From NCBI RefSeq assembly GCF_024298965.1, contig NZ_CP085193.1, forward strand, positions 7,564,001-7,628,000: 64,000 nt of DNA. Direction: 5' to 3'. Made by a program: the position numbers and the translations under genes. Positions 16,946-39,400 of this stretch are shown piece after piece. The notes under the pieces were generated by a model. That model was not told the origin of the DNA. It was given only the letters and a program-made list of their open reading frames with translations, and searched no databases. The stretch comes from Streptomyces rapamycinicus NRRL 5491. GTDB taxonomy: Bacteria > Actinomycetota > Actinomycetes > Streptomycetales > Streptomycetaceae. Each line of letters starts with the position of its first letter. The stretch's first letter is position 1.

Positions 16946-19900
16946 GTGGCTAGCGCGAACGAAGAGAAGCTTCTCGACAATCTGAAGTGGATGACCACTG
17001 AGCTGCGCCGGGCCCGTCGCCGCCTGACCGAGGTGGAGGCGGACGCGCAGGAACCGATCGCCATTGTGGCGATGAGCTGCCGTTTCCCCGGTGGCGTCGG
17101 TTCACCCGAGGATCTGTGGCAACTGGTCGCGGAGGGCGGCGACGCCATTTCCGGATTCCCCGCCGACCGCGGCTGGGACATCGAGGGACTGGCCGATCCG
17201 GACCCCGACCGCAAGGGCACCTTTTACAACAGCGGCGGCGGATTCCTCGACGGCGCCGCCGAATTCGACCCCGGATTCTTCGGCATTTCGCCGCGCGAGG
17301 CCCTTGCCATGGACCCGCAGCAGCGGCTGCTGCTGGAGACGTCGTGGGAGGCGTTCGAGCGCGCGGGAATCGACCCGACGTCCGTCAAGGGCAGCCGCAC
17401 CGGTGTGTATGTGGGCGCCTCGGCCATGGGCTACGGCTCCGATGTCCAGGGCGCGCCGGAGGAACTGGAGGGCCTGCTGCTCACCGGCGGTGCCACCAGC
17501 GTGCTGTCCGGCCGTATCGCCTACACCTTCGGCCTCGAGGGCCCGGCCGCCACGATCGACACCGCGTGCTCGTCGTCGCTGGTCGCGCTGCACTGGGCGG
17601 CCCAGGCGCTGCGGCAGCGCGAATGCTCGCTCGCCCTCGTCGGCGGCGTCACCGTGATGCCCAACCCCGATGTCTTCGTGGAGTTCAGCCGCCAGCGCGG
17701 CCTCGCCCCCGACGGACGCTGCAAGTCCTTCGCCGCGTCGGCGGACGGCACCGGCTGGTCCGAGGGCGTCGGCGTACTGCTGGTCGAGCGGCTGTCGGAC
17801 GCGCGCCGACACGGCCACCAGGTGCTGGCCGTCGTGCGCGGCAGCGCCGTGAACCAGGACGGCGCGTCGAACGGTCTGACGGCGCCGAACGGCCCGTCCC
17901 AGCGGCGTGTCATCCGCCAGGCGCTGGAGAACGCCCGGCTGTCAGCCGCCGAGATCGACGTCGTCGAGGCGCACGGCACGGGCACCACGCTGGGCGACCC
18001 CATCGAGGCGCAGGCGCTGCTCGCCACCTACGGCCAGGAGCGGCCCGAGGGGCGGCCCCTGTGGCTGGGCTCGCTCAAGTCCAACCTGGGCCACGCCCAG
18101 GCGGCGGCGGGCGTCGCGGGCGTCATCAAGATGGTCATGGCCATACGCCACGGCCTCATGCCCAAGACCCTCCACGTCGATGAGCCCTCCCCGACCGTCG
18201 ACTGGACGGCGGGCGAGGTGTCCCTGCTGACCGAGGCCCGTCCCTGGGACGAGACCGGCAGGCCGCGCCGAGCCGGTGTCTCGGCCTTCGGCGTGAGCGG
18301 CACCAACGCCCACACCATCCTGGAGCAGGCCCCCGAGCAGGAGGAGGCTCGGGAAGATTCTCCGGAGCCGGACGGGGACGCCACCCCGGCCGCGAACGCC
18401 GCGCCGGTCACCGCCACCGTGCTGCCGTGGCTCCTCTCCGCCAGGAACGCGGCGGCGCTGCGCGACAACGCCCGGCGCCTCGCCTCCCACCTCGACCGCG
18501 AACCCGCCCTCGGCACCGTCGACGTGGGCCACTCACTGGCCACCGGCCGGGCGGCCCTGGAGCACCGCGCGGTGCACGTGGGCGAGGACCGCGCCGGGCT
18601 GGCGGCGGGCCTGGAGGCGCTGGCGCGGGGGGAGTCCGCGCCGGGGCTGGTCGAGGGCACGGTCGTCGAGGGCGAGACGGCGTTCCTGTTTGCGGGGCAG
18701 GGGAGTCAGCGGCTGGGGATGGGGCGTGAGTTGTATGGCGCCTATCCGGTGTTCGCGGAGGCGTTGGATGAGGTGTGTGCGGAGCTGGATCCGCATCTTG
18801 AGCGGCCGCTGAAGGATGTCCTGTTCGGGGGCGATGCCGAGGCGCTGGGTCAGACGGGGTTCACTCAGCCTGCGTTGTTCGCGGTTGAGGTGGCGTTGTT
18901 CCGGCTGGTTTCGGAGGCGTGGGGTCTGCGGCCCGATTTCCTTTCCGGGCATTCGATTGGTGAGTTGGCCGCCGCGCATGTGGCGGGCGTGTTGTCGCTG
19001 GCGGATGCGGCGCGGTTGGTGGCGGCGCGTGGGCGTTTGATGCAGGAGCTTCCGACCGGTGGCGCGATGGTCGCGGTGCAGGCGTCGGAGGACGAGGTGG
19101 CGCCGCTGCTGACGGAGCGGGTGTCGATCGCGGCGCTCAATGGGCCGTCGTCGGTGGTCATCGCGGGTGATGAGGACGCGGCTCTGGAGATCGCTTCCGG
19201 TTTCGAGGCGCGGGGTCGTAAGACCAAGCGGCTCACCGTGAGCCACGCGTTCCATTCGCCGCGTATGGACGGGATGCTGGAGGCGTTCCGCGAGGTGGCG
19301 CAGGGGCTGTCGTACGAGGCTCCGAAGATTCCGATCGTGTCGAATCTGACCGGTGGCGTGGTGTCCGCCGAGGAGATCACGACTCCCGACTTCTGGGTGC
19401 GCCACGTCCGCGAGGCCGTCCGCTTCCTGGATGGCATCCGCACCCTCGAAGCGCGCAACGTCACCACGTACATCGAGCTGGGCCCGGACGGGGTCCTGAC
19501 CGCGATGGCGCAGGACTGCGTGACCGACGCCACGTCCGACGCCGCGTTCATCTCGGCGCTGCGCAAGGACCGTCCCGAGGCCGAGGCGCTGACCACGGCC
19601 GTCGCGCGTGCCCATGTGCGCGGTGTGGCGGTGGACTGGGCCGGATACTTCGCCGGTAGGGACGCCCAGCACGTCGATCTGCCGACGTATGCCTTCCAGC
19701 ACGAGCGGTTCTGGCTGGAGCCGGGTGCGGCGTCCGTAGGCGATGTGGCGTCCGTGGGCCTGGAGCTGGCCGGGCATCCGCTGCTCGGCGCCGCCGTGCC
19801 GCTGGCGGAGACCGATGGGCTGGTGTTCACGGGACGGCTGGGTGTGGATACGCATCCGTGGCTGGCCGATCATGTGGTGCAGGGCGCGGTGGTGCTGCCC

Positions 19901-22900
19901 GGTACGGCGTTCGTGGAGCTTGCCGTTCGCGCCGGTGACCAGGTCGGCTGCGACCTGCTCGACGAGCTGACCCTGCACGCCCCGCTGGTGCTGCCGGAAC
20001 GCGGTGGCGTCCGGCTTCAGCTCACCGTCGGCGCGCCCGATGGCGCCGGACGGCGGTCGCTGACCGTGCTGTCCCGCGCGGAGGACGCCCCGGCCGAGCA
20101 GCCTTGGACGCGACACGCCGACGGTGTGCTCGCCACGGGCGCGCCCCGGCCGTCGTTCGCGCTGACCGCGTGGCCGCCGCAGGGCGCCGAGGCGGCCCGT
20201 ACCGAGGAGCTGTACGCGGCGCTCGCGGACGGCGGGCTGCGGTACGGCCCGGTGTTCCAGGGGCTCACGGCCGCCTGGCGGCGCGGGGACGAACTCTTCG
20301 CCGAGGTCCGGCTGGACGAGTCCGCCGCCTCCGACGCGCAGGCGTACGGCCTGCACCCGGCGCTGCTCGACTCGGCGCTGCACGCGCTCGGCCTGGACGG
20401 CCTGGGCGACGGTGATGGCGACGGCGACGGCCAGGGGCGGCTGCCGTTCGCCTGGAGCGGTGTGTCGCTGTACGCGAGCGGCGCGCCCGCGCTGCGGGTA
20501 CGGCTTGAGCCGCGTGGCGCGGACGGTGTCCGGCTGGAGATCGCGGACGCGGCCGGTGCGCCGGTCGCGGCCGTGGACTCACTGGTGCTGCGCGCCGTGT
20601 CGGCCGAGCAGGTGCGGGCCGCGCGGGCGGCATACCACGAGTCGCTGTTCCGCGTGGAGTGGACCGAGCTCCCGGCCGGGGCGGGCGCCGGCGCGCCCGG
20701 CGGCGGTCGCTGGGCGGTGCTGGGCACGGATGCGTTCGGGTTGGGTGCCACGGCATACGCGGACCTCGCGGAGCTGGGCGAGGCCGTCGATTCCGGAACG
20801 GCCCTGCCGGACCAGGTCGTGGTTTCCCTGACGTGGGATGGTGCGGCACTCGAATGCCCGGGTGCGGCATCTCCGGCCCGTCCGGCGTTTGAGGACCGGG
20901 GCCTTGGGTCGGAGCCTCAAGTTTCGGGAAGGGGCGGGGTGGGGGAATCGCCCGCCACCACGGCGCACCAGGCCACCACCCAGGTGCTGGGCCTGCTGCA
21001 GCAGTGGCTGGCCGACGACCGCTTCACGGACTCACGTCTGGTCCTGCTGACCTCGGGGGCCGTGGCCACCGAGGCCGGAGAGCCGGTGGCGGACCTCGCG
21101 GGCGCCGCCGTCCACGGTCTGCTGCGCACGGCGCAGGCCGAGAACCCGGACCGCTTCGTCCTCCTGGACGTCGACGGCCAGGACGCGTCGCTCGCGGCGC
21201 TTCCGGCCGCGCTGGCGGCGGGCGAGGAGCAGCTGACCGTACGTGCGGGCGTGGCCCGCATCCCGAGGCTGGCCAGGGTGCCGGTCGCGGAAGAGACGAC
21301 CACCGAGAACACCTTCGACCCCGAGGGCACGGTGCTGGTGACCGGCGCGTCCGGTTCGCTGGGCGGGCTGGTGGCGCGGCATCTGGTGGCCGAGCGTGGC
21401 GTACGGCATCTGCTGCTGGTGAGCCGCCGTGGCGAACAGGCCCCCGGTGCGGCCGAACTCGGCTCCGAGCTGGCCGGGTTGGGCGCCGAGGTGGCCTGGG
21501 CGGCGTGTGATGTGGCGGACCGGGACGCGCTCGTCGCGGCCCTCGCCACCGTTCCCGCCGAGCATCCGCTGACCGCCGTGGTCCACACCGCCGGTGTGCT
21601 GGACGACGGTGTGATCGGCTCGCTGACGCCTGAGCGCATAACGCACGTCATGCGCCCGAAGGTGGACGCGGCCTGGAACCTCCACGAGCTCACCCGCGAG
21701 CTGGACCTGACCGCCTTCGTGCTGTTCTCCTCCGCCTCGGGCGTGTTCGGCACCCCCGGCCAGGGCAACTACGCGGCCGCCAACGCCTTCCTGGACGCCC
21801 TGGCCGCACACCGCCGCGCCGAGGGTCTGCCCGCCGTCTCGCCGGCCTGGGGCCCCTGGGCGGGCGCCGGGATGGCCGGTGGCCTGGACGAGGCCGACAT
21901 CAGCCGGATGCGGCGCGCCGGACTGCCGCCGCTGTCCCCGGCGGAGGGCCTGGCGCTCCTGGACGCCGCGCTCACCACGGACGAGGTGGCACCGGTCCCG
22001 ATGCGCGTGGACGCCGTGGCGCTGCGCGCCCAGGCCGCGGCGGGCGCGCTGGCGCCGCTGCTGCGCGGGCTGGTGCGGGTCCCGGTGCGCCGCGCGGTGG
22101 ACACCGCCGCGGGCGGCGGTTCCGCGCTGGCGGAGCGGCTGGCCGGGCTGGGCGAGGCGGAGCGGGACCGGGTGCTGCTGGACCTGGTGCGTACGCAGGT
22201 GGCGGCCGTCCTCGGCTATGCGGGCCCGCAGGCCGTCGAGGAGGGCCGGGCGTTCAAGGACCTGGGCTTCGACTCCCTGACCGCCGTCGAACTGCGCAAC
22301 CTGCTGCGCGAGGCCACCGGGCTGCGGCTGCCGCCGACGCTCGTCTTCGACTACCCCACCTCGACCGCCCTGGCGGGCCATCTGCGCCAGGAGATCGTGG
22401 GGGACCCGGCCGACGCCATCGTCCCCGACCGGGTGATCAGCGCGGTGGACCGCGACGACCCGATCGCGATCGTCGCCATGAGCTGCCGCTTCCCCGGCGG
22501 GGTGCACTCGCCCGAGGAGCTGTGGCAGTTGCTGGTGGCGGGTGACGACGCCATCACGCCGTTCCCGGCCGACCGCGGCTGGGACCTCGCCACCCTCTAC
22601 AGCGACGACCCCGACCTCGAGGGCACCAGCTACACCCGCGAGGGCGGCTTCCTGCACGACGTGGCCGACTTCGACGCCTCGTTCTTCGGCATCTCGCCGC
22701 GCGAGGCCCTCGCCATGGACCCGCAGCAGCGGCTGCTGATGGAGACCACCTGGGAGGCGTTCGAGCGGGCCGGGATCGACCCGGCCGCGCTGCGCGGCAG
22801 CCGTACCGGCGTCTACATCGGCTCCAACGACCAGGACTACCTGACCCTGTGGCTGAACGAGCCGCAGGGCCTCGAAGGCCACCTCGGCACCGGCAACTCC

Positions 22901-25900
22901 TCCAGCGTGGCCTCCGGCCGCCTCTCCTACGCCTTCGGGCTCGAAGGCCCGGCGGTCACCATCGACACCGCCTGCTCGTCCTCGGTGGTGGCGCTGCACC
23001 TGGCGGCGCAGGCGCTGCGCAACGGCGAATGCTCGCTCGCGCTGGCCGGTGCCGTCACCGTCATGTCCACCCCGGGCGCCTTCCTGGAGTTCAGCCGGCA
23101 GCGCGGACTGGCCGCCGACGGCCGGATCAAGGCGTTCTCCGGTGACGCGGACGGCACCAACTGGTCCGAGGGCGTCGGCCTGTTCCTGGTGGAGCGGCTC
23201 TCCGACGCCCGCAGGAACGGTCACCCGGTGCTCGCCGTCCTGCGCTCCACCGCCATCAACCAGGACGGCGCGTCCAACGGCTTGACGGCGCCCAACGGCC
23301 CGTCCCAGCAGCGCGTCATCCGGCAGGCCCTCGCCAACGCCGGGCTGTCGGCCACGGACATCGACGTCGTGGAGGCCCACGGCACCGGCACGACGCTCGG
23401 CGACCCGATCGAGGCGCAGGCGCTGCTCGCCACCTACGGCCAGGACCGGCCCGAGGACCGCCCGCTGTGGCTGGGCTCGGTGAAGTCCAACATCGGCCAC
23501 ACCCAGGCCGTGGCGGGCGCCGCCGGCATCATGAAGATGGTCATGGCGATGCGCCACGGTGTGCTGCCGCGGACCCTGCACGTCAGCGAGCCGACCCCGC
23601 ACGTCGACTGGACGGCGGGGGACATCGAGCTGCTGACCGAGGCCCGGCCCTGGCCGGAGACCGGCCGTCCGCGCCGCGCGGGCGTGTCGTCGTTCGGCTT
23701 CAGCGGCACCAACTCGCACGCCATTATCGAGCAGGCCCCGGCCATGGATGCGGTCCCCGCGCCCGCCCCGGAGCGGTCCCTGCCCGTCCTCGCCTGGCCG
23801 GTCTCGGCCCGCACCGAGGACGCGCTACGGGCCCAGGCCGCCCGGCTGCGCCGCTCCGTGGCCGCAGCCGGGGCCGACGGTCCGCGCCCGCTCGACCTCG
23901 CGTACTCCCTGGCCACTTCGCGCGCCGCCCTGGAACACCGGGCCGTGCTGCTCGGCCGGGACGGCGACCTCCTCGGCGACCAGCTGGCGGCGCTGGCCGA
24001 GGGGCGTGGCACGGCGGGGCTCGTCGCGGGCTCGGTGGCCGGTGGCAAGGTGGCGTTCCTGTTCACCGGTCAGGGCAGCCAGCGGCTGGGGATGGGGCGT
24101 GAGCTGTACGACGCCCACCCGGTGTTCGCGGAGGCTCTGGACGCGGTGTGTGCTGAGCTGGACGGGCACCTTGAGCGGCCGTTGAAGGACGTCCTGTTCG
24201 GGGATGACGCCGAGGCGCTGGACCGGACGGGGTTCACTCAGCCCGCGCTGTTCGCGGTCGAGGTGGCGCTGTTCCGGCTGGTCTCGGAGGCGTGGGGGCT
24301 GAAGGCGGACTTCCTGTCCGGGCATTCGATCGGTGAGCTGGCCGCCGCGCATGTGGCGGGTGTGCTGTCGCTCGCCGACGCCGCGAAGTTGGTGGCCGCC
24401 CGTGGGCGTCTGATGCAGGAGCTGCCCACCGGTGGCGCGATGATCGCGATCCAGGCGTCCGAAGACGAGGTGACGCCGCTGCTCACCGAGCGCGTCTCGA
24501 TCGCCGCGCTCAACGGGCCCACCTCCGTGGTCATCGCGGGCGATGAGGACGCGGCGCTGGAGATCGCTTCCGGTTTCGAGGCTCAGGGCCGTAAGACCAA
24601 GCGGCTCACGGTCAGCCACGCCTTCCACTCCCCGCGCATGGACGGCATGCTGGACGCGTTCCGCGAGGTGGCGCGGGGGCTCACCTACGAATCCCCGCGC
24701 ATCCCCATCGTGTCCAACCTGACGGGCGAGCTGGTCTCCGCCGAGGAGATCACCAGCCCCGACTTCTGGGTGCGCCACGTCCGCGAGGCGGTTCGCTTCC
24801 TGGACGGCGTACGGACGTTGGAAGCCCAAGGCGTCACCACCTACGTCGAGCTGGGCCCCGACGGTGTCCTCACCGCCATGGCCCAGGACTGCGTGACCGA
24901 CGCCGACACGGCCGCCTTCGCCACCGCGCTGCGCAAGGGCCGCCCCGAGGCGGAGACCGTCACCACCGCGCTCGCCCAGGCGTATGTCCGGGGCGCCGAG
25001 GTGGACTGGGCCGGGTACTTCGCCGGGACCGGCGCGCACCGCGTGGACCTGCCGACGTACGCGTTCCAGCGCCGCCGCTACTGGCCGGACACCGCCCCGG
25101 CGGCCGGGACCCCGGCCGAGGGTGCCATGGACGCGGTGGACGCGCGGTTCTGGGAGGCGGTCGAGCGCGAGGACTGGGAGTCGCTCGCCGGTGAGCTGCG
25201 GGTCGAGGGCGACCAGCCGCTCAGCGCGGTGCTGCCCGCCCTGTCGTCGTGGCGCCGCGCCCAGCGTGAGCGGTCCGCCGCCGACGGCCACCTCTACAAC
25301 GTGATGTGGAAGCCGCGTCCGCGGGGCGGCCCGTCGGGCGCCCCGGCCCCGTCCGGCACCTGGCTGACCGTCGTCCCGGCGAGCCACGCCGACGACCCGC
25401 GGCTCACCGCCGTGGCCGAGGATCTGACGCGGCGCGGCGTGCACGTCGTCACGCTCGAACTGGACACCGTGGACACCGACCCCGCCGCCGTGGCCGACCG
25501 CCTCGCCGCGGCGACGGTCGACGGCCCGGTGGCCGGGGTGCTGTCCCTGCTGGCGCTGGACGAGCGGCCGCACCCCGAGCATCCGGCGGTGCCGGTCGGC
25601 CTCGCGCTGACCGGTGCGCTGGCCGAGGCGCTGGCGCGGCGGGGCGGCGACGCCCCGGCGCGGCTGTGGTGCGCCACCCGGGGCGCGGTCTCGACCGGCG
25701 GCGCCGACCGGCTGGACAGCGCCACCCAGGCCCAGGTCTGGGGCTACGGCCGCGTGGTCGCCCTGGAACAGCCCGAGCGCTGGGGCGGTCTGGTCGATCT
25801 GCCGGAGACCGTGGACGAGCGGGCGCTGGACCGGCTCGCGGCCGTACTCGCCGGGTCGGACGACGAGGACCAGGTGGCCATCCGCGCCACCGGGGTCTTC

Positions 25901-27331
25901 GTACGCCGTCTCGTCCCGGCCCCGCGCACCGCGGCCACCGCGGCCGCCGAGCCCTGGACGCCGCGCGGCACCGTGCTGGTGACCGGTGGCACGGGCGCCC
26001 TGGGGCGGCATGTGGCCCGCTGGCTGGCCGACCACGGCGCGGAGCGGCTGGTGCTGCTCAGCCGCCGTGGCCCCGACGCGCCGGGCGCGGCCGAGATCAT
26101 GGCCGAACTGTCCGGCACCGACACCGCCGTGACCGTCGAGGCGTGCGATGTGGCCGACCGCCAGGCACTCGCCGCGCTGGTGGAGAAGCTGGCCGTGGGC
26201 GGCACCCCGGTCCGGGCCGTGGTGCACTCGGCCGGGATCTCCCAGGAGCCCGGCACCGGCACCGAACTCCCCGAGTTCGCCCGGATCGTGGCGGCCAAGA
26301 CGACCGGTGCGGTCCACCTCGACGCACTCTTCGGCGCGGACGCCGACCCGCTGGACGCCTTCGTGCTCTTCTCCTCGATCGCCGGGGTGTGGGGCAGTGG
26401 CGGCCAGGGCGCGTACGCGGCCGGAAACGCGTTCCTCGACGCGCTGGCCGAACAGCGCCGGGCCCGTGGCCTGCCCGCCACCTCCGTGGCCTGGGGCCCG
26501 TGGGCGGAGGGCGGCATGGCCGCCGAGGGCGACGCCGGGGAGCAGCTGCGCCGCCGTGGACTGCCGCCCATGGCACCGGAGTTGAACATGGTCGCCTTCC
26601 AGCGGGTGCTCTCCCGCGAGGAGACCGCCGTGACGGTTGCCGATGTCGACTGGGAGCGTTTCGCCCCGGCCTTCACCGCCGCCCGCCCCCGCCCGCTGAT
26701 CGACGATCTGCCGCAGGTGGCCAAGGCCCTGCGCGGCGACGTCGAGCCGGCGGACACGGTGGCGGCCGACGGCGCGTCGGGCCTGCGCGAGCGGCTCGCC
26801 GGGCGGTCCGCGGCCGAGCGCGAGGACGCGGTGCTCGAGCTGGTCCGCACCCATGTGGCCAGCGCCCTCGGCCACGCCTCCGCCGACGAGGTCGAGGCCG
26901 GACGCGCCTTCAACGAACTGGGCTTCGACTCGCTCACCGCGGTCGAACTGCGCACCCGGCTCGGCGCCGCCACCGGCCTCAAGCTGCCCGCGAGCCTGGT
27001 CTACGACTACCCGACACCGGCCGCGCTCGCCGAGCACCTGCTGACCGAGCTGGTCCCGGACGGACCGGGCCACGGCCCCGGCCACGCCCTGCCCGATGTG
27101 GACCTCGACCCGCAGGACGCCGAGCTGCGCCGCACCCTGGCCACCATCCCGATGAGCCGGATCCGGGAGGCCGGGCTGCTGGACACGCTGCTCAGGCTGG
27201 CCGATCCACAAGCCGCCACTTCCGACCCCAGCCGCGCCGAGGACGAGGCGGAGTCCATCGACGAGATGGACGTCCAGCACCTCATCGACATGGCACTCGA
27301 CCTCGACAGCCTCGACGGCAACGATTCCTGA
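16946..27331 (+). CDS. Modular type I polyketide synthase, gene 2: KS-AT-DH-KR-ACP / KS-AT-KR-ACP
   Basis: Two-module PKS of 3461 residues. The GTG start is chosen because AGGAGGTGA lies 7 nt upstream and the first 34 residues form the charged helix of an N-terminal docking domain, directly before the first KS. Module e: KS Cys208, AT Ser670 with HAFH (malonyl), DH His976 in a canonical HxxxGxxxxP motif with Asp1142, B-type KR, ACP Ser1777. Module f: KS Cys2010, AT Ser2461 (malonyl), A-type KR with Trp3149 and no LDD, ACP Ser3329. The C-terminus is a different docking class from genes 1, 3 and 4 ([19 protein letters not shown] then [11 protein letters not shown]). Residues about 1299-1336 in the DH-KR linker are encoded by a sequence that looks like a dispersed intergenic repeat. 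Predicted outcome: one alkene and one hydroxyl. Confidence 0.97.
17048..22400 (+). other. Module e: KS-AT(malonyl)-DH-KR(B)-ACP
   Basis: KS Cys codon 17567; AT Ser codon 18953 and HAFH to 19255; DH from 19775 with His codon 19871 in [10 protein letters not shown], the only DH here with the full HxxxGxxxxP motif, and Asp codon 20369; KR motif near 21335, LDD, intact [19 protein letters not shown] Ser codon 22274. Alkene predicted with good confidence. The DH-KR linker holds the repeat-like insertion at 20839-20955. Confidence 0.92.
20839..20955 (+). repeat. Dispersed-repeat-like sequence read in frame in the module e DH-KR linker
   Basis: The core (about 20873-20948) contains CCCGTCCGGCGTTTGAGGAC, then an imperfect stem CTTGGGTC/GCCTCAAG, then GGGAAGGGGCGGGGTGGGGG. 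I recognise this order from short repeats common in Streptomyces intergenic regions. A second copy lies at 40999-41160 at the same place in module i. The encoded peptide ([20 protein letters not shown]) has no match in other linkers of the window. Confidence 0.7.
22454..27060 (+). other. Module f: KS-AT(malonyl)-KR(A)-ACP
   Basis: KS Cys codon 22973; AT Ser codon 24326 with HAFH to 24628; dimerization element about 25129-25264; KR without LDD ([16 protein letters not shown]) and with Trp (codon 26390) 8 residues before Tyr, so A-type; ACP Ser codon 26930. Predicted hydroxyl. Its KR core resembles that of module d closely ([16 protein letters not shown] in both). Confidence 0.9.
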
Positions 27332-27458
27332 CGCGGGCCCAAGCACGGAGTACACGATGACAACCCCCAACGAAAAGCTCGTTGACGCGCTGCGGGCCTC
27401 GCTGAAGGAAACCGAGCGGCTGCGGAAACAGAACCAGCAGCTCACCGACGCCTCCCGG
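27070..27458 (+). other. Docking interface gene 2 C-terminus / gene 3 N-terminus (second class)
   Basis: The gene 2 C-terminus reads [19 protein letters not shown], then [14 protein letters not shown], unlike the other C-termini. The gene 3 N-terminus ([20 protein letters not shown]) is of the classical coiled-coil type. A distinct class here should prevent mispairing with the other junctions. Confidence 0.8.
27347..27350 (+). promoter_or_regulatory. Ribosome binding site of gene 3
   Basis: GGAG 6 nt before ATG 27357, in the 25-bp gap after gene 2. Confidence 0.7.
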
Positions 27459-30400
27459 GAACCGATCGCGATCGTCGGCATGAGCTGCCGGTTCCCCGGC
27501 GGCGTCGGCAGCCCCGAGGAGCTGTGGCGGCTCGTCGCGGACGGCCAGGACGCCATCTCCGGCTTCCCCGACGACCGCGGCTGGGACATCGAGTCGCTGT
27601 ACGACCCGGACCCGGAGCGCGAGGGCACCTTCTACGCCCGCGGGGGCGGCTTCCTGTACGACGCGAGCCGGTTCGACCCGGGCTTCTTCGGGATCTCGCC
27701 GCGCGAGGCGCTGGCGATGGACCCGCAGCAGCGGCTGCTGCTGGAGACGTCGTGGGAGGCGTTCGAGCGGGCCGGGATCGACCCGGCGACGACGCGGGGT
27801 TCGCGTACCGGTGTGTTCGTCGGCGCGTCCACGCAGGCGTACGGGGCGGGGGAGTACGACCTGCCGGAGGGTGTCGAGGGCCATCTGCTCACCGGCACCG
27901 CCTCCAGCGTCGCGTCCGGGCGGCTCTCCTACGCCTTCGGTCTCGAGGGCCCGGCGGCCACCATCGACACCGCCTGCTCCTCGTCCTCGGTCGCGCTGCA
28001 TCTGGCGGTCCAGGCGCTGCGGCAGAGCGAATGCTCGCTGGCGGTGGCGGCGGGCGCGACCGTGCTGTCATCCCCGGATGTGTTCGTGGAGTTCAGCCGC
28101 CAGCGCGGACTCTCCGCCGACGGCCGCTGCAAGTCCTTCGCGGCCTCGGCGGATGGCACGGGCTGGTCCGAAGGCGTCGCCGTGCTGCTGGTCGAGCGGC
28201 TGTCGGACGCGCGGCGGAACGGCCACCCGGTGCTTGCGGTGGTGCGCGGCAGCGCCGTGAACCAGGATGGTGCGTCCAATGGTCTGACGGCGCCGAACGG
28301 CCCGTCCCAGCGGCGTGTCATCCGGCAAGCACTGGAGAACGCCCGGCTCGCCCCCTCCGACGTGGACGCGGTGGAGGCGCACGGCACGGGCACGACGCTC
28401 GGCGACCCCATCGAGGCGCAGGCGCTGCTCGCCACGTACGGCCAGGAGCGGCCGGAGGGCCGGCCGCTGTGGCTCGGTTCGCTGAAGTCGAACATCGGCC
28501 ACACCCAGAACGTCGCCGGTATCGGCGGCGTCATCAAGATGGTCATGGCGATGCGGCACGGGGTGCTGCCGCGGACGCTGCACGTGGACGAGCCCACCCC
28601 GCATGTCGACTGGTCGGCGGGAGAGGTGTCCCTGCTGACCGAGGCGCGGCCGTGGCCCGAGACCGGCCGGCCGCGCCGGGCGGGCATCTCGTCGTTCGGT
28701 GTGAGCGGCACGAATGTGCACACCATCATCGAGCAGGCGCCGGAGGCGGAGGTCGCGGAGGTGGCTGAGGCGCCTTCGGGTGCTGTGGCCCCGGGTGTGG
28801 TGCCGTGGGTGCTCTCGGGTCGGGGTGCGGATGCGCTGCGTGCTCAGGCGGAGCGGCTGGTGGTGCATGTGGAGGCTCGGCCCGAGCTGCGGCCGGTGGA
28901 TGTGGGGTTCTCGCTCGCGACCGGGCGGTCGGCCTTTGAGCGTCGTGCGGTGGTGGTGGCTGAGGGCCGGGATGGGCTGCTGGCCGGGTTGGGTGCGCTG
29001 GCGCGAGAGGAATCCGCGCCCGGGCTGGTCGAAGGTTCGGTGGCCGGTGGCAAGGTGGCGTTCCTGTTCACCGGTCAGGGCAGCCAGCGGCTGGGGATGG
29101 GGCGTGAGTTGTATGACGCCTATCCGGTGTTCGCGGAGGCTCTGGACGCGGTGTGTGCGGAGCTGGATCCGCATCTTGAGCGGCCGCTGCGGGATGTGTT
29201 GTTCGGGGATGACGTCGAGGCGCTGGATCAGACGGGGTTCACTCAGCCTGCGTTGTTCGCGGTTGAGGTGGCGTTGTTCCGGCTGGTCTCGGAGGCGTGG
29301 GGGCTGAAGGCGGACTTCCTGTCCGGGCACTCGATCGGTGAGCTTGCCGCCGCGCATGTGGCGGGTGTGCTGTCTTTGGCGGACGCGGCGAAGTTGGTGG
29401 CGGCGCGTGGGCGGTTGATGCAGGAGCTTCCGGCGGGTGGCGCGATGGTCGCGGTGCAGGCGTCGGAGGATGAGGTGGCGCCGCTGTTGACCGAGCGGGT
29501 GTCGATCGCGGCGCTCAATGGGCCGTCGTCGGTGGTCATCGCGGGTGATGAGGACGCGGCGGCTGAGATCGCGGCCGTATTCGAGGCGCGGGGCCGTAAG
29601 GCCAAGCGGCTCACGGTCAGCCACGCGTTCCACTCGCCGCGCATGGACGGCATGTTGGACGCCTTCCGCGAGGTGGTGGAGGGGCTGTCGTACGAGGCCC
29701 CGCGGATCCCGATCGTCTCCAACCTGACCGGTGCCGTCGTCTCCGCCGAGGAGATCACGACCCCCGACTTCTGGGTGCGCCATGTCCGCGAGGCCGTGCG
29801 CTTCCTGGACGGGGTGCGGACCCTTGAGGCGCAGAACGTCGCCACTTTCATCGAGTTGGGCCCGGACGGTGTGCTCACCGCGATGGCCCAGGACTGCGTG
29901 ACCGACGCCGCGTCCGACGCCGCGTTCATCTCGGCGCTGCGCAAGGACCGTCCCGAGGCCGAGGCGCTGACCACGGCCGTCGCACGTGCCCATGTGCGCG
30001 GCGTGGCACCGGACTGGGCCGCGTACTTCGCCGGTACGGGCGCGCACCGCGTGGACCTGCCCACGTACGCCTTCCAGCGCGAGCGGTTCTGGCTGGAGCC
30101 GGGCGCGGCGTCCGTGGGTGATGTGGCGTCCGTGGGCCTGGAGTTGGCCGGGCATCCGCTGCTGGGCGCCGCGGTGCCGCTGGCGGAGACCGATGGGCTG
30201 GTGTTCACGGGACGGCTGGGTGTGGATACCCATCCGTGGCTGGCCGAGCACACGATCCGGGACGCGGCGGTGGTGCCGGGCTCGGCGTTCGTGGAGCTTG
30301 CCGTCCGGGCCGGTGACCAGCTCGGCTGTGACCTCCTTGACGAGCTGACCCCGCACACCCCGCTGGTGCTGCCCGTACGCGGTGGCGTCCGGCTCCAGGT

Positions 30401-33400
30401 CACGGTCGGCGCGCCGGACGACGCCGGGCGCCGCTCGTTCACCGTCTCCTCCCGCGCGGAGGACGCCGCCGCCGACACGGCATGGGTGCGCAACGCGAGC
30501 GGAGTGCTCGCCTCCGGCGCCCCCAGCCCGTCGTTCGACCTCGCCGAGTGGCCACCGAACGCCGCCGAGACCATCGAGCCCGAGGCGCTTTATGCCCGGC
30601 TGGCCGAGGACGGGCTGCGGTACGGCCCGGCGTTCCAGGGGCTCACGGCTGCCTGGCGGCGCGGGGACGAACTCTTCGCCGAGATCCGGCTGGACGACGA
30701 CGCCAAGCCCGGCGCCGAGGAGTTCGCCGTCCACCCGGCGCTGCTGGACGCCGCCCTGCACGCCCTCCACGGCCGCGACGGCGCCCAGCTGACCGATGGC
30801 TGGCAGGGCGTCTCCCTGTACGCGGAGGGCGCGTCCGCGCTGCGCGTACGCATCGCACCCGCCGGAGCCGACACGGTCTCCCTGGCGCTGGCCGACGCCA
30901 CGGGCGAACCGGTCGCCGCCGTGGACGGCCTGCGCCGCCGTCCGCTGCCCGACGACCTCACCGGTGACGCGGACGTGGCGCGGCAGAGCCTGTTCCGGCT
31001 GGACTGGGTGGCCCCGCAGACCGCCTCCGCCGGTCCGGACGCCGCCGCGCGCCGTATCGTCCTGGGCGAGGACCCGTTCGGGCTGGTCGCCGCCGGAGCG
31101 GCCGCCGACTCCGCCCCCGATCTGGCCGCGCTGGGCGCGTCCGTCGAGGCGGGCGACACCGCCGCCCCCGAGCTGGTCCTCGCGTCCTTCGCCCCCATAT
31201 GCGGCGACGCGAACGAGAACGTGGCCGAGGCCGCGCACCGGGAGGCGCGGCGTGCGCTGGCCCTGGTGCAGGGTTGGCTGGCCGATGAGCGGTTCGCCGC
31301 CGCGCGCCTGGTGCTCGTCACCCGGGGCGCGATGGCCACTGATGCCGAGGAGGGCGTCACCGACCTGGCGCACGCGCCCCTGTGGGGTCTGGTGCGCTCC
31401 GCCGAGACCGAGAACCCGGGGCGTTTCGTCCTCGTCGACCTCGACGAGACCTCCACCGACGCGCTCTCCGACGCCCTGGCCACCGAGGAGCCGGAACTCG
31501 CCCTGCGCACGGGCCGCCCGCTGGCCCCCCGACTGACCCGCGCCTCGGCCCCGGGCCTGGACTCCACCTCGGCCCCGGACCCGGCCTCGGCCCCGGGCAA
31601 CAACTCCGCGTCCCCTGCCCCCGCGTTCGGCGCCGACGGCACCGTGCTCATCACGGGCGGAACCGGCGCCCTCGGCCAGTTGCTCGCCCGCCACCTGGTG
31701 GCCGAGCACGGCGTACGCCATCTGCTGCTGACCAGCCGCCGTGGTGCGGACGCCGACGGGGCCGCCGAGTTGGCCGCCGAACTCCGTGCCCGGGGCGCCG
31801 AGGTCACCTTCGCCGCCTGCGACGCCGCGGACCGCGACGCGCTCGCCGCGACCCTGGCCGCCGTTCCGGCCGAGTATCCGCTGACGGCCGTCGTGCACAC
31901 CGCCGGTGTGCTGGACGACGGCACGGCCGCCGCCCTGACGCCCGAGCAGCTGGAGCGGGTGCTGCGTCCGAAGGTGGACGCGGCGTGGAATCTGCACGAG
32001 CTGACGCGTGATCTCGACCTGTCCGCGTTCGTGCTGTTCTCCGCCATCGCGGGCACGCTGGGCGGCGCGGGCCAGGCCAACTACGCCGCGGCCAACGTCT
32101 TCCTCGACGCGCTCGCCGCCCACCGCCACGCGGCGGGCCTGCCCGCCACCTCGCTGGTGTGGGGCCTGTGGGCCCAGTCCGGCGGGATCACCGGCGGGCT
32201 GACCGAGACCGATCTGCTGCGGCTGGCCCGCAGCGGCATGGGCGCCCTCAGCGACGACGAGGGGATGGCGCTCTTCGACGCCGCTCACCGCACGCGCCGT
32301 ACCCTGCTGATCCCGGCCCGCCTCGACCTCGCCGCGCTGCGTACCGCCGCCGGATCCGGCCCGGTCCCGGCGCTGCTGCGGGGGCTGATCCGGTCCACCG
32401 GCCGGCGTACCGCCGCGGGTGCGCTCGCCGCTGGTTCGTCCCTGGCCGAGCGGCTGCGAGCGCTCTCCCCGAACGAGCGCCGCCGGACGCTGCTGGACCT
32501 CGTACGCGGCCATGTGGCCACGGCCCTCGGCCACGCCTCCGCCGACGCCATCGAGGCGCGCCGGGCCTTCAAGGAGCTGGGCTTCGACTCGCTCACCGCC
32601 GTCGAACTGCGCAACCGGCTCTCCGCCGCCACCGGGCTCAAGCTGCCCACCACGATCGTCTTCGACCACCCCAACCCCATCGTTCTCGCCGACCATCTGC
32701 GCGTCGAACTCCTCGGCCCGGACGGGAACGAGACCGAGGCCGGGCCGGCGGACCCGGCACTCGCCACCGCCACCGCCGCCTCCCTCGCCGACGACCCGAT
32801 CGCCATCGTCGCGATGGGCTGCCGCTACCCCGGCGAGGTCCGCTCGCCCGAGGAGCTGTGGCAGCTCGTGGCCACGGGCTCGGACGCCATCACCGGATTC
32901 CCCGTCAACCGCAACTGGGAGAGCCAGTGGGCGGCGGACGGCGACGAGGCCGACGCGGGCCCGCCCGCCTACGCCCGCGCCGGTGGCTTCCTGCACGAAG
33001 CGGACCTCTTCGACGCGGCCTTCTTCGGGATCTCGCCGCGTGAGGCGCTGGCCATGGACCCGCAGCAGCGGCTGCTGCTGGAGACGTCCTGGGAGGTGTT
33101 CGAGCGCGCCGGGATCGATCCGGACGCGCTGCGCGGCCGCTCGGTCGGCGTGTTCGTGGGCGCGGCCTACAGCGGCTACGACGCGGGTCTGGAGCAGGCC
33201 GGTTCGGAGGTCGCGGGCCATGTGATGACGGGCAACGCGGGCAGTGTCATGTCCGGCCGTATCGCCTACGCCCTCGGTCTGGAGGGCCCGGCGGTCACCG
33301 TGGACACGGCCTGTTCGTCGTCGCTGGTGGCGCTGCACTGGGCCATCCAGGCGCTGCGCCAGGGCGAGTGCGCGATGGCGCTCGCGGGTGGTGTCACCGT

Positions 33401-36400
33401 GATGACGACGCCCGGCCACTTCACCGAGTTCGGCCGCCAGGGCGGCCTGGCCGCCGACGGCCGCTGCAAGCCGTTCGCGGCGGGTGCGGACGGCACCGGC
33501 TGGGGCGAGGGCGTGGGCATGCTGCTCGTGGAGCGGCTGTCGGACGCGCGGCGCAACGGCCACCAGGTGCTGGCCGTGGTGCGCGGCTCGGCCGTCAACC
33601 AGGACGGTGCCAGCAACGGCCTCACCGCGCCGAACGGCCCGTCCCAGCAGCGCGTCATCCGCAAGGCGCTGACCAGCGCCGGGCTGACCAGCGGCGATGT
33701 GGACGTGGTCGAGGCGCACGGCACGGGTACGACGCTGGGCGACCCGATCGAGGCGCAGGCGCTGCTGGCCACCTACGGGCAGGAGCGGGCCGAGGGGCAG
33801 CCGCTGTGGCTGGGCTCCATCAAGTCCAACATAGGCCACGCCCAGGCGGCGGCCGGTGTCGCGGGCATCATCAAGATGGTGATGGCCATGCGGCACGGTG
33901 TGCTGCCGCAGACGCTGCACGTGGACGAGCCGTCGCCGCATGTCGACTGGACGGCCGGTGACATCGCGCTGCTGACGGAGCGGATGGCGTGGCCGGAGAC
34001 CGGTCGCGCGCGGCGGGCCGCGGTGTCCTCGTTCGGCATCAGCGGCACCAACGCGCACACCATCATCGAGCAGGCCCCGGCCATCGCCGCCGAGCCGGTG
34101 GCGGACGCCGAGCGGGACGGCTCCGGTGTGCTGCCGTACGCGCTCTCCGCCAAGGGCACCGTCGCCCTGCGCGCCCAGGCCGAGCGGTTGTACGCCCATC
34201 TGACCGCCCAGCCCGACCTCGAACCGGCCGACATCGCCCACACCCTGGCCACCGGCCGCGCCGCGCTGGACGCACGCGCGGTGCTGGTCGCGGACGGCAG
34301 GGACGACCTGCTGGCCGGTCTCGACGCGCTGGCGCGGGGGGAGTCCGCGCCGGGGCTGGTCGAGGGCGCGGTCGCCGAGGGCGAGACGGCGTTCCTGTTC
34401 ACGGGGCAGGGGAGCCAGCGGCCGGGGATGGGCCGCGAGCTGTACCACGCCCATCCGGTGTTCGCGGAGGCGTTGGACGCGGTCTGCGATGAGCTGGACG
34501 TACACCTCGAACGGCCCTTGAAGACGGTGCTGTTCGGGGACGACGCCGAGGCGCTGGACCGGACGGGGTTCACTCAGCCCGCGCTGTTCGCGGTTGAGGT
34601 GGCGTTGTTCCGCCTGGTCTCGGAGGCGTGGGGTCTGACGCCGGACTTCCTCTCCGGGCACTCGATCGGTGAGCTTGCCGCCGCACATGTGGCGGGTGTG
34701 CTTTCGCTCGCCGACGCCGCCAAGCTGGTGGCGGCGCGTGGGCGGTTGATGCAGGAGCTCCCGGCCGGTGGCGCGATGATCGCCGTCCAGGCGTCGGAGG
34801 ACGAGGTGGCGCCGCTGCTGACCGAGCGGGTCTCGATCGCCGCGCTCAACGGCCCGACGGCAGTGGTCATCGCGGGTGATGAGGACGCGGCTGTCGCGAT
34901 CGCGGCTGGTTTCGAGGCGCAGGGCCGTAAGACCAAGCGGCTCACCGTGAGCCACGCGTTCCACTCGCCGCGGATGGACGGCATGTTGGACGCCTTCCGC
35001 GAGGTGGCCGAGGGGCTGACCTACGAGGCCCCGCGCATCCCGATCGTGTCCAACCTGACCGGCACCGTGGTCTCGCCCGAGGAGATCACAACGGCCGACT
35101 TCTGGGTGCGCCACGTCCGCGAGGCGGTCCGCTTCCTCGATGGCATCCGGACCCTCGAGGCCCAGGGCGTCACCACCTTCATCGAACTCGGCCCCGACGG
35201 TGTCCTGACCGCCATGGCCCAGGAGTGCGTCACCGACGCCGACGCGGCTGGATTCGCCGCCGCGCTGCGCAAGGACCGTCCCGAGGCCGAGGCGCTGACC
35301 ACGGCCGTCGCCCGCGCGTATGTGCGTGGCGTGGCACCGGACTGGGCCGGGTACTTCGCCGGGACCGGCGCGCACCGGGTCGACCTGCCGACGTACGCCT
35401 TCCAGCACCGCCGCTACTGGCCCGAGGAGCCGGTGGCCGGCCTGGCCGCCGCCGCGGGTGTCGACGGCTGGCGGTACCAGGTGGCGTGGAAGCCCCTGTC
35501 GCTGGGCTCCGCGGCCCGGCTGTCCGGGGTGTGGCTCGTCGTCGCGCCCGCCGAGGACGCCGCCGCCGACGCGTGGGCGGACGGTGTCGTCCGTACGCTG
35601 ACCGAGCGGGGTGCCGAGGTGCGGCGGCTCGACCTGGCGGACGGTGTCAACGACGCCGCCGAGGACCGCGCGTCCATCGCCGAGCGGCTGCGTACGGCCG
35701 CCGACGGCGGCGCCGTGGCCGGCGTGCTCTCGCTGCTGGCCGCCGGGGACGCCGACGGCCTGCTGCCCACGGCCGCCCTCGTGCAGGCCATGGGCGACGC
35801 CGCGATCGACGCGCCGCTGTGGTGTGCCACCCGGGGCGCGGTCTCGACGGGGCGTCAGGGCGAGCTGGTGGACCCGGCCCGCGCCCAGGTCTGGGGCCTG
35901 GGCCGGGTGGCGGCCCTGGAGCTGCCCGACCGCTGGGGCGGTCTCATCGACCTCCCCGAGACGATGACCGACCGGGTGCTCTCGCGGCTCGCGGTGGTGC
36001 TCGCCGCGGCCGGGGACGAGGACCAGATCGCCGTCCGCGCCTCCGGGGTGTTCGGCCGCCGGCTGGCGCGGGCGACCGCACGGCAGATGGCGGAGTCCGA
36101 GGGCTGGAGCGCGCACGGCACGGTGCTGGTGACGGGCGGTACGGGCGCGCTGGGCGGCCAGGTGGCCCGTTGGCTGATCGACAAGGGCGCCGAGCATGTG
36201 ATGCTCACGAGCCGCCGTGGCCTGGATGCCCCGGGCGCGGCCGAACTGCGCGATGAACTCGCCGCGTCCGGCGCCCGGATCACGGTCGCCGCGTGCGATG
36301 TGGCCGACCGGGAGGCGCTGGCCGGGCTGCTGGCCGACCTTCCCGCCGAGCTCCCGCTGACGGCGGTGGTGCACGCGGCCGGGGTGCTGGACGACGGCGT

Positions 36401-39400
36401 CCTGGAGTCGCTGACCCCCGAGCGCTTCGCCACCGTCCTGCGCGCCAAGGCCGACACCGCGCTCGCGCTGGACGAGCTGACGCGCGATCTCGACCTGTCC
36501 GCGTTCGTGCTGTTCTCCTCGACCAGCGGCACCGTGGGCGCCGCGGGCCAGGCCAACTACGCCGCCGCGAACGCCTTCCTGGACGCGCTCGCCGAGCGGC
36601 GGCGCGCCGATGGCCTGCCCGCCACCTCGATCGCCTGGGGCCCGTGGGCCGCGGGCGGCATGGCCGCCGACGAGGCGCTGGAGCAGCGCATGCGCCGCGC
36701 CGGGATGCCGCCGATGGACGCCGATCTCGCGATCGACGCCCTGGAGCGCGCCCTCGACCTGGGCGACGCGGCCGTGACCGTGGCGGACGTCGACTGGGAC
36801 CGGTTCGCGCCGGGCTTCACCGCGGGCCGCCCCAGCCCCCTGCTGGCCGACCTGCCCGAGGTGCGCCGGGCCGCCGTCACCGCGACCAGTGAGGCCGCAC
36901 CCGCCGAGACGGCCTCCGCGCTCGCGCGGCGCCTCCTCGGCCTGCCCGAGGCGGAGCGCCACCGGGCGCTGCTGGATCTCGTACGGACCCATGTGGCGGA
37001 TGTCCTCGGCCACGCCGATGTGTCCGACATCAGCGCCGAACGGGCCTTCCGCGAGATCGGCTTCGACTCCCTCACCGCCGTCGAACTGCGCAACGGCCTC
37101 AACGCCGCCACCGATCTGCGGCTGCCCGCCACCCTCGTCTACGACTACCCGACACCGCTCGCCCTCGCCGACCACCTCTTCGCCGAACTGCTCGGCGGGC
37201 AGGTGGCGACCACGGGCGACGTCTCGCCGGTGGCGGGCGTGGCGGCCGACGACGATCCGATCGCGATCGTCGCGATGAGCTGCCGCTTCCCGGGTGGTGT
37301 CCGCACCCCCGAGGAGCTGTGGCGGCTGCTGGTGTCCGGCACGGACGTCATCTCGGACATGCCCGCCGACCGAGGCTGGGACCTCCACACGCTCTACAAC
37401 CCGGACCCGGACGTCGAGGGCACCTCGTACGTCCGCGAGGGCGGCTTCCTGCGGGACGCGGCCGACTTCGACCCGGCGTTCTTCGGCATCTCGCCGCGTG
37501 AGGCGCTGGCCATGGACCCGCAGCAGCGGCTGCTGCTGGAGACGTCGTGGGAGGCGTTCGAACGCGCGGGCATCGACCCGGCGACGCTGCGCGGCTCCAC
37601 CGCCGGTGTCTTCGTCGGCACCAACGGCCAGGACTACCTCTCCCTGCTGCTGGGCGACTCGCAGGGCCTCGAAGGCCACATGGGCACGGGTAACGCGGCC
37701 AGCGTGATCTCGGGTCGGCTCGCCTACACCTTCGGCCTCGAAGGTCCCGCGGTCACCATCGACACCGCCTGCTCCTCGTCGCTGGTCGCCCTCCACTCGG
37801 CGATCCAGGCGCTGCGCGGCGGCGAGTGCTCGATCGCGCTCGCGGGCGGTGTGACCGTGATGTCCACGCCCGGTGTGTTCGTGGACTTCAGCCGTCAGCG
37901 CGGACTCGCGGAGGACGGCCGGATCAAGGCGTTCGCGGCCGAGGCGGACGGCACCGGCTGGGGCGAGGGCGTCGGCATGCTGCTCGTGGAGCGGCTGTCG
38001 GACGCGCGGCGCAACGGCCACCCGGTGCTCGCGCTCGTGCGCGGCACGGCGGTCAACCAGGACGGTGCGTCGAATGGTCTGACGGCGCCGAACGGTCCGT
38101 CCCAGCAGCGGGTGATCCGTCAGGCGCTGGCGGGTGCGGGGTTGTCGGCGTCCGAGGTGGACGCGGTCGAGGCCCATGGCACGGGCACTCGACTGGGCGA
38201 CCCCATCGAGGCGCAGGCGCTGCTCGCCACGTACGGCCAGGGCCGGGCGGAGGGGCAGCCGCTGCTGCTCGGCTCCATCAAGTCCAACATCGGCCATACG
38301 CAGGCCGCCGCCGGTGTCGCCGGTGTGATGAAGATGGTCCTCGCCATGCGGCACGGGGTGTTGCCGCAGACGTTGCATGTGGACGAGCCCACCCCGCATG
38401 TCGACTGGTCGGCGGGCGACATCAGCCTGCTGACGGAGGCGCGGGAGTGGCCGGAGACCGGCCATCCGCGCCGTGCGGGCATCTCCTCGTTCGGCTTCAG
38501 CGGCACCAACGCCCACGCCGTGGTGGAAGAGGCCCCGGCGGCCGACGTCGCCGAGGCTGTCGCGGACACCGATGAGGGCGCGTCGGCCCTGCCGGTGCTG
38601 CTCTCGGCCCGTACGGAAGACGGGCTGCGCGCCCAGGCCGGGCAACTGCACGGCCACCTGACCGCGCGGACCGATCTCCGCACGGCCGACCTCGGCTACG
38701 CACTCGCCGTGGGCCGCTCGGCCTTCGAGGAGCGCGCGGCGCTGGTCGCCGAGGACCGGGACGGGCTGCTGTCCGCTCTGGAAGCGCTCGCCGAGGGGCG
38801 TACGGCGACCGGGCTCGTACAGGGCTCGGTGGCCGCTGGCCGGGTGGCGTTCCTGTTCACGGGGCAGGGCAGCCAGCGCCTGGGGATGGGCCGTGAGCTG
38901 TACTACGCGTACCCGGCCTTCGCGGAGGCGTTGGACGCGGTCTGTGATGAGCTGGACGGGCACCTTGAGCGGCCGTTGAAGACGGTGCTGTTCGGGGACG
39001 AGTCGGCGGTACTGGACCGGACGGGGTTCACTCAGCCTGCGTTGTTCGCGGTTGAGGTGGCGCTGTTCCGGCTGGTCGAGGCGTGGGGGCTGCGGCCCGA
39101 TTTCCTCTCCGGGCATTCGATCGGTGAGCTGGCTGCCGCGCATGTGGCGGGTGTGCTGTCGCTCGCGGATGCGGCGAAGCTGGTGGCGGCGCGTGGGCGT
39201 TTGATGCAGGAGCTTCCGGCGGGTGGCGCGATGGTCGCGGTGCAGGCGTCGGAGGATGAGGTGGCGCCGCTGCTGACCGAGCGGGTCTCGATCGCCGCGC
39301 TCAACGGCCCGACGGCAGTGGTCATCGCGGGCGACGAGGACGCGGCGCTGGAGATCGCTTCCGGTTTCGAGGCGCAGGGCCGTAAGACCAAGCGGCTCAC

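What the first reader, a model, noticed from the sequence alone, without database searches (positions are those of the whole stretch)
20839..20955. A Streptomyces intergenic-type repeat used as coding sequence in a PKS linker (module e)
The DH-KR linker of module e contains a segment whose DNA looks like a dispersed intergenic repeat (CCCGTCCGGCGTTTGAGGAC, stem, GGGAAGGGGCGGG), yet the frame stays open across it. Linkers in modules b, g and k lack it. If confirmed, it is a mobile or spreading repeat domesticated inside a megasynthase without breaking it.
Basis: partly seen in the sequence, partly recalled or inferred. Interest (0 to 1): 0.72.

Follow-up and report, generated by a model that had tools for sequence, protein, structure and literature searches.

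The report
Intergenic DNA repeat inside polyketide synthases
A short hairpin-forming DNA repeat that Streptomyces bacteria normally carry between genes also lies, in frame, inside a floppy loop of giant antibiotic-making enzymes and of a few other proteins, where its DNA letters, not just its amino acids, have stayed almost unchanged.

Summary
The segment at 20873-20958 is a copy of a dispersed hairpin repeat. In 420 kb fetched around its matches in this genome a profile finds 72 repeat loci: 63 of 65 outside the PKS cluster are intergenic, most often between convergent genes; the other two are ORF 3' ends. AlphaFold2 gives the loop pLDDT about 30. Related PKSs carry it too: all 61 bearing linkers of a 151-row tree fall in one KR subtree. 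Unexpectedly, 51 PKS core copies hold one synonymous change (0.6% of same-residue codon pairs differ, against 37.6% in flanking codons) and keep rare codons, so what is conserved is the DNA. In other Streptomycetaceae the repeat also lies in frame in unrelated proteins (CobB, PTS EIIAB, PfkB kinase, ABC proteins). It behaves like intragenic REPs and Rickettsia palindromic elements; I found no description of it in the open-access library searched. "Domesticated" is not shown: a tolerated, still-turning-over passenger fits better.

The parts
16946..27331 (+). type I PKS gene (3461 aa) that holds copy 1 in the DH-KR linker of its first module
20873..20958 (+). repeat copy 1 (profile positions 2-84 of 88), in frame as [26 protein letters not shown]
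   Evidence: nhmmer hit 7584873-7584958, E 1.9e-14; blastn
20878..20896 (+). core CCGTCCGGCGTTTGAGGAC; its arms GTCC/GGAC form stem 1
20926..20938 (+). tail GGGAAGGGGCGGG (codons GGA AGG GGC GGG)
20837..20944 (+). codons of the loop predicted disordered (pLDDT about 30) between strand 59-63 and helix 105-125 of the KR structural subdomain
   Evidence: AlphaFold2 model residues 67-102
27357..52913 (+). second PKS gene (8518 aa), which holds copy 2
   Evidence: nhmmer hit 7605082-7605164, E 1.8e-14
41000..41014 (+). partial extra left end of a repeat unit (TCAAGCCCGTCCGGC) upstream of copy 2, in the same frame; seen by eye
   Evidence: sequence; translation

Best explanation
The segment is one copy of a dispersed hairpin repeat of Streptomycetaceae (stem 1 about CCCSTCC...GGASCGGG, stem 2 about CTGGGGCGGAGCCCCAG, then GGGAAGGGGCGGG) that normally sits in intergenic 3' regions, singly or as arrays of roughly 50-bp units. 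In an ancestor of this clade a copy of the G..C subtype landed in frame in a naturally loose loop of the KR structural subdomain of one module type. One orientation and frame is free of stops, so it reads as a disordered insert ([NS][QP]ARPA[FIL]ED...GRGGxGE). It then reached many linkers by duplication and recombination of modules. Inside the loops the units are still gained, lost and copied, which keeps their DNA nearly identical while the flanks diverge. The same repeat has also entered other proteins at inter-domain linkers and loops. The cell tolerates the insert because the loop is permissive; no benefit is needed. Shown: dispersal, intergenic preference, frame, predicted loop position, stem covariation, synonymous freezing, single KR subtree, a unit difference between close relatives. 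Inferred: the founder event, the copying mechanism (recombination or gene conversion, or mobilisation in trans by an unknown transposase), and neutrality for the enzyme.
For: Own genome: 63 of 65 non-PKS repeat loci intergenic although 80% of the same fetched non-PKS DNA is called coding; the two exceptions are ORF 3' ends with negative coding score; 34 of 63 lie between convergent genes, against 10 of 96 gaps without a repeat in the same stretches; 7 of 7 PKS loci coding. Same loop and frame in 7 linkers. Core motif in 61 of 121 PKS proteins examined. Tree of 151 DH-KR-type KRs: all 61 bearers in one subtree (support 96), 11 changes against about 48 for shuffled labels. 51 core copies in 32 linkers: 49 of 7937 same-residue codon pairs differ (all from one GCC to GCT), against 12040 of 32044 in flanks; lowest 7-codon flank window 15.5%; a looser pattern adds four copies with a changed residue and one more synonymous change. 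Usage of the frozen codons in three PKS genes of the window: TTT 1.6%, CTT 2.1%, ATT 3.9%, AGG 2.2%, GGA 3.7%. Stems: 98.1% of cells paired and 9 two-sided changes, 0 of 500 shuffles as high on either; C-G or G-C at the covarying pair in 136 of 137 distinct non-PKS copies. The closest counterpart compared with module e (92% aa identity, 5 of 91 synonymous differences) differs by a whole unit in the loop. Loop pLDDT 29-33. Other proteins.
Against: The PKS copies are all of the G..C subtype, while 61 of 74 own non-PKS copies are C..G: constant re-seeding from random local intergenic copies does not fit, so copying must be mostly among PKS loops, or selection must act on the DNA. Synonymous freezing can also mean purifying selection on DNA or RNA, which I cannot separate from copying. 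No transposase was tied to the repeat: Y1_Tnp (PF01797) is in 99 of 295 genomes; of the 12 genomes with over 100 first-look candidates, 8 have it and 4 do not, so it is not required, though over-represented. RNA folding energy of four single copies is not clearly lower than that of shuffles (z -0.07 to -1.64), and the count of further pair types is not unusual (118 of 500 shuffles). Gaps used as control come from stretches centred on repeats. Neutrality for the enzyme is untested.
Confidence: 0.72

Rival explanations
1. Selection on the DNA or RNA itself: the repeat is a functional site (hairpin bound by a protein, RNA-stability or recombination signal) whose sequence is kept by purifying selection wherever it lies, the PKS copies included.
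For: Near-zero synonymous change in the core and in the first four tail codons while one site varies among A, C and T as it does between genes of this genome; compensatory stem changes; exact core in 66 of 200 genomes of the family.
Against: A unit is gained or lost even between close relatives, 65 of 295 genus genomes gave no translated match at E 0.5, and no function or binding protein is known to me.
Confidence: 0.2
2. Peptide-level domestication: the encoded ARPA[FIL]ED...GRGG segment is a useful linker of the KR and is kept by selection on the protein.
For: Same loop and same frame in the bearers, and few linkers of the subtree lack it.
Against: 7 of 14 DH-KR linkers of the same cluster lack it; the loop is predicted disordered; conservation is at synonymous sites, with amino-acid changes allowed at the free site; copy number and order vary between related linkers.
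Confidence: 0.06
3. Ordinary homologous PKS linker sequence, or low-complexity high-GC coincidence, with intergenic look-alikes by chance.
For: Streptomyces DNA is GC-rich, and KR loops of this cluster do collect other coding tandem repeats.
Against: 53 matches at E <= 0.001 in the genome; 103 against 20 in the backward control; 63 intergenic loci.
Confidence: 0.01
4. Several independent insertions by an active mobile element (MITE or REP type, moved in trans) into the same hot-spot loop, rather than one founder spread by module duplication.
For: In-frame insertions in five other protein families, and a sixth case at a gene junction, show that the repeat can enter coding DNA; composition differs between neighbouring modules; near-identical cores fit recent arrival.
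Against: All 61 bearers are in one KR subtree, and the 51 cores are G..C subtype, one orientation, one frame.
Confidence: 0.2

Closest known systems
Rickettsia palindromic elements (RPE)
   Same: Palindromic repeat found both between genes and in frame inside unrelated proteins (described in the passages seen of PMC10969869, which cites Ogata 2000).
   Different: Other taxon; sequences not compared. Here one megasynthase loop is a hot spot with up to 3 core units per linker, and the core is frozen at synonymous sites.
Intragenic REPs (GTAG and CGTC families, PMC3733652)
   Same: Small palindromic repeats, mostly intergenic, favouring convergent and unidirectional gaps near gene 3' ends, some inside ORFs, CGTC type without a dedicated transposase (passages seen).
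   Different: The passages place CGTC repeats in Proteobacteria, Chlorobi, Bacteroidetes, Spirochaetes and Thermotogae; the words Streptomyces and Actinobacteria do not occur in the main text. Our core contains CGTC but was not matched to those consensus sequences.
MITEs
   Same: Short, and intergenic arrays often end in opposed copies of the tail; MITEs can fuse in frame with genes (passages of PMC10969869).
   Different: No parent transposase and no target-site duplication demonstrated here.

Membership tests
REP (repetitive extragenic palindrome) | palindromic repeat with a conserved stem | tested here: met
   98.1% of cells paired, two-sided changes at 3 pairs, slid controls 41-68% paired
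REP (repetitive extragenic palindrome) | many dispersed copies, mainly between genes | tested here: met
   63 of 65 non-PKS loci intergenic
REP (repetitive extragenic palindrome) | association with a RAYT / Y1 tyrosine transposase (GTAG class) | tested here: inconclusive
   PF01797 in 99 of 295 genomes, and in 8 of the 12 with over 100 first-look candidates; absent from G074, G089, G096, G173; linkage of gene and repeat not examined
REP (repetitive extragenic palindrome) | GTAG or CGTC tag at one end of the stem as in PMC3733652 | not tested
   core holds CGTC, but it was not compared with the published consensus sequences
Rickettsia palindromic element | same element in frame in unrelated proteins as well as between genes | tested here: met
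   PKS, CobB, PTS EIIAB, PfkB kinase, two ABC proteins; SoxD/SoxA junction less certain
Rickettsia palindromic element | sequence homology to an RPE family of Rickettsia | not tested
   not compared; different taxon, so not filed as an RPE
MITE | terminal inverted repeats | tested here: inconclusive
   opposed tails at the ends of many intergenic arrays; exact ends not fixed
MITE | target-site duplication and a parent transposase | not tested
   no intergenic empty site was compared

The most novel reading that the evidence does not exclude
The PKS copies are live DNA elements: sequences embedded in coding DNA whose letters are maintained by a process blind to the protein (recurrent copying between loops or selection for the hairpin), so that they act as short identical handles which promote recombination and shuffling of modules within and between giant PKS clusters.
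Probability: 0.25. Interest if true: 0.85.

Novelty: new variant of a known kind. Interest (0 to 1): 0.63.

Why it matters
In-frame palindromic repeats are known in Rickettsia and some other bacteria, but I found no account of them in Streptomyces or in modular megasynthases in the library searched. If right, it shows a natural site where a KR tolerates a long disordered insert (useful for PKS engineering), may explain why some PKS records end inside the array, and offers a testable case in which identical short DNA segments inside modules could guide module exchange. The frozen synonymous sites make the question of copying versus selection directly testable.

Tried and rejected
Two own-genome pattern searches were badly written (one search found nothing; one search had a letter missing, and its 13 places against 9 in the control are not used). 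Six two-mismatch places (112209, 1092318, 3515901, 4250093, 4673109, 8436040) were fetched but not confirmed by the profile and are not among the 72 loci; one search lists only the first places of 103. A first regex extraction of modules missed many and was replaced by a profile. Rfam: no family at gathering score on 10 loci. Phage collection: no match; plasmid collection: one record, Streptomyces sp. NBC_01351, no annotated feature under it in an incomplete gene table. RNA folding z-scores of four single copies were unremarkable, so the case for the stems rests on covariation. Y1_Tnp as mobilising enzyme: not required, see evidence against. The 36 extra stretches from other genomes were chosen for long open frames and are a biased sample: 6 of 36 had a called gene spanning the repeat; L201 is an ORF end and L183 a weak partial match in a low-complexity stretch, so four are counted. 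A search for further coding insertions with the CobB insert returned one protein at E 1e-3, a 98%-identical match named as CobB. In the tree, 11 rows inside the bearing subtree were labelled without the element; four (P0072, P0037_1, P0100, P0059) are truncated at the linker and cannot be scored, seven lack the motif. My first count of other-genome copies (74) included places fetched twice; the distinct count is 63. The core count of 51 left out four PKS copies with a changed residue. Strand-to-helix distances came from a loose regex and are not used.

Full report
What is there. The window is bases 7564001-7628000 of a one-contig 12.47-Mb genome and lies in a large type I PKS cluster. The core CCGTCCGGCGTTTGAGGAC is at 20878-20896 and the tail GGGAAGGGGCGGG at 20926-20938. 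A profile built from 27 copies outside the PKS cluster, run on the 72 stretches fetched around the matches and the cluster (419,945 bases, not the whole genome), gives 144 hits, which group into 72 loci, among them 20873-20958 and 41082-41164 of the window.

Is it a dispersed intergenic repeat? Yes. The query has at least 53 matches in its own genome. With genes called by a codon-usage model trained on this genome, 63 of 65 non-PKS loci are intergenic, although 80.4% of the same non-PKS DNA is called coding; the two exceptions are 3' ends of ORFs where the coding score turns negative. Of the 63, 34 lie between convergent genes, 27 between co-directional and 2 between divergent ones; gaps without a repeat in the same stretches are convergent in 10 of 96, a control limited by the stretches being centred on repeats. 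Many loci are arrays of units about 50 bp apart, often with opposed tails at both ends. The exact 19-mer core is found in 66 of 200 genomes of the family, up to 278 copies in one; a translated core matches in 230 of 295 genus genomes at a loose E of 0.5.

How widespread is it in PKSs? Of 121 proteins examined, 61 carry the core motif, 92 times (one search listed 120 of 124 hits); named sources of bearers include S. iranensis, javensis, malaysiensis, himastatinicus, asiaticus, antioxidans, violaceusniger and melanosporofaciens. In a FastTree tree of 151 DH-KR-type KR regions (the region starts after the insert) all 61 bearing linkers are in one subtree of 72 rows, with 11 label changes against about 48 in shuffles; 7 rows of that subtree lack the motif and 4 cannot be scored. 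Many inner forks are weak (58 of 148 open), but the subtree itself has support 96. This argues for one founder, or very few, followed by duplication and recombination of modules.

DNA, not protein, is conserved. In 32 distinct linkers from this and other genomes I found 51 core copies: GCC CGT CCG GCG nTT GAG GAC, with n = T 21, A 17, C 13, and one GCC to GCT change. Same-residue codon pairs differ in 49 of 7937 comparisons in the core, against 12040 of 32044 in the next 110 codons; the lowest 7-codon flank window is 15.5%. In the seven tail codons 144 of 2883 differ; the first four are GGA AGG GGC GGG in 30 of 31, and the changes are at the later, variable codons. A looser pattern adds four copies with one changed residue, one of which also has CTC for CTT: two synonymous changes in 55 copies. 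The pair comparisons are not independent and some source genomes may be close relatives, but two synonymous changes in 55 copies is plain. The frozen codons include rare ones (TTT 1.6% of Phe, ATT 3.9% of Ile, CTT 2.1% of Leu, AGG 2.2% of Arg, GGA 3.7% of Gly in three PKS genes of the window). A per-codon table shows the same across the unit, with synonymous variation mainly at a few sites. The copies were found by protein patterns, so synonymous invariance was not selected for. Yet the loop is not static: between module e here and the closest counterpart compared, from S. violaceusniger (92% aa identity, 5 of 91 synonymous differences downstream), a whole unit is gained or lost. The free base is A 35, C 23, T 16 in own non-PKS copies and mostly T (57 of 63) in other genomes, so the PKS copies resemble their clade in this.

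Structure. Stem 1 (C/G)TCC...GGA(G/C) with flanking CCC/GGG, and stem 2 CTGGGGC-GGA-GCCCCAG, pair in 98.1% of cells over 23 copies (21 non-PKS, 2 PKS), with nine two-sided changes; slid controls pair in 41-68%. The first covarying pair is C-G or G-C in 136 of 137 distinct non-PKS copies (own 61 and 13; other genomes 17 and 45, one C/A; the pattern there fixes TTGAGGA by construction). The PKS cores are all G-C. Folding energy alone does not stand out.

Other proteins. In other Streptomycetaceae the repeat lies in frame in the linker between the two domains of CobB (L093; domains at 10-195 and 338-520, element from codon 295), between EIIA and EIIB of a PTS permease (L176; 5-143 and 197-288), between permease and ATPase parts of a branched-chain-type ABC protein (L185), before the ATPase domain of another ABC protein (L190; Pfam found only the ATPase, the membrane part is my reading), and in a loop of a PfkB-type kinase (L208, L100, and by eye a relative, L232). 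At SoxD/SoxA one open frame runs through it (L096), but SoxA may have its own start, so translation of the element is not shown there. For the kinase, relatives L236 and L237 have the empty site, and for the PTS protein a 92%-identical relative lacks the GRGG part. Some cases use another frame (L190, L208, L100). None of the 65 non-PKS loci of the window's own genome is a convincing coding case.

Mechanism. I favour a tolerated passenger: a founder insertion in a permissive loop, spread with modules, and unit turnover or copying that keeps the DNA uniform. Selection on the hairpin as DNA or RNA is the main rival. Peptide-level domestication is unlikely, because the protein-level free site varies while silent sites hardly do, and because sister linkers do without it.

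What is known. Intragenic REPs and Rickettsia palindromic elements are the closest kinds (passages seen of PMC3733652 and PMC10969869). PMC4681348 mentions the REP elements of E. coli in a study that includes Streptomyces transcripts (passages). Searches (listings only) showed no paper that from its title or abstract start describes this repeat; the library holds only openly licensed papers and long lists were cut, so prior description elsewhere is possible.

Noticed in passing
L034:10602-10787 (genome about 7658602-7658787): Another KR linker of the cluster carries an unrelated in-frame 15/30-bp coding tandem repeat (GDPATGVPTHG...-like) in a different loop of the structural subdomain.
   Followed up: partly
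L033:8092-8292 (genome about 7636092-7636292): The KR linker at 7636336 holds unrelated 18-bp and 27-bp coding tandem repeats just before the same helix, so this loop may be a general hot spot for repeat expansion.
   Followed up: no
genome 7642504 and 7647949: Two neighbouring modules are near-identical over the KR linker, element included: probably a recent module duplication.
   Followed up: no
P0052, P0057, P0073, P0077, P0080: These PKS protein records end inside or just after the repeat array, as if assemblies break there.
   Followed up: no
P0090 (S. antimycoticus), residue about 4532: The protein leaves the expected frame just after the element core; frameshift in the repeat or sequencing error.
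   Followed up: no
P0017 modules at 1297 and 3086: Sister KR domains in one protein, one with and one without the element, suggesting recombination between linker and KR.
   Followed up: no
G428, G389, G306 and others: Copy number of the exact core varies from 0 to 278 between the 200 Streptomycetaceae genomes searched; no cause found.
   Followed up: partly
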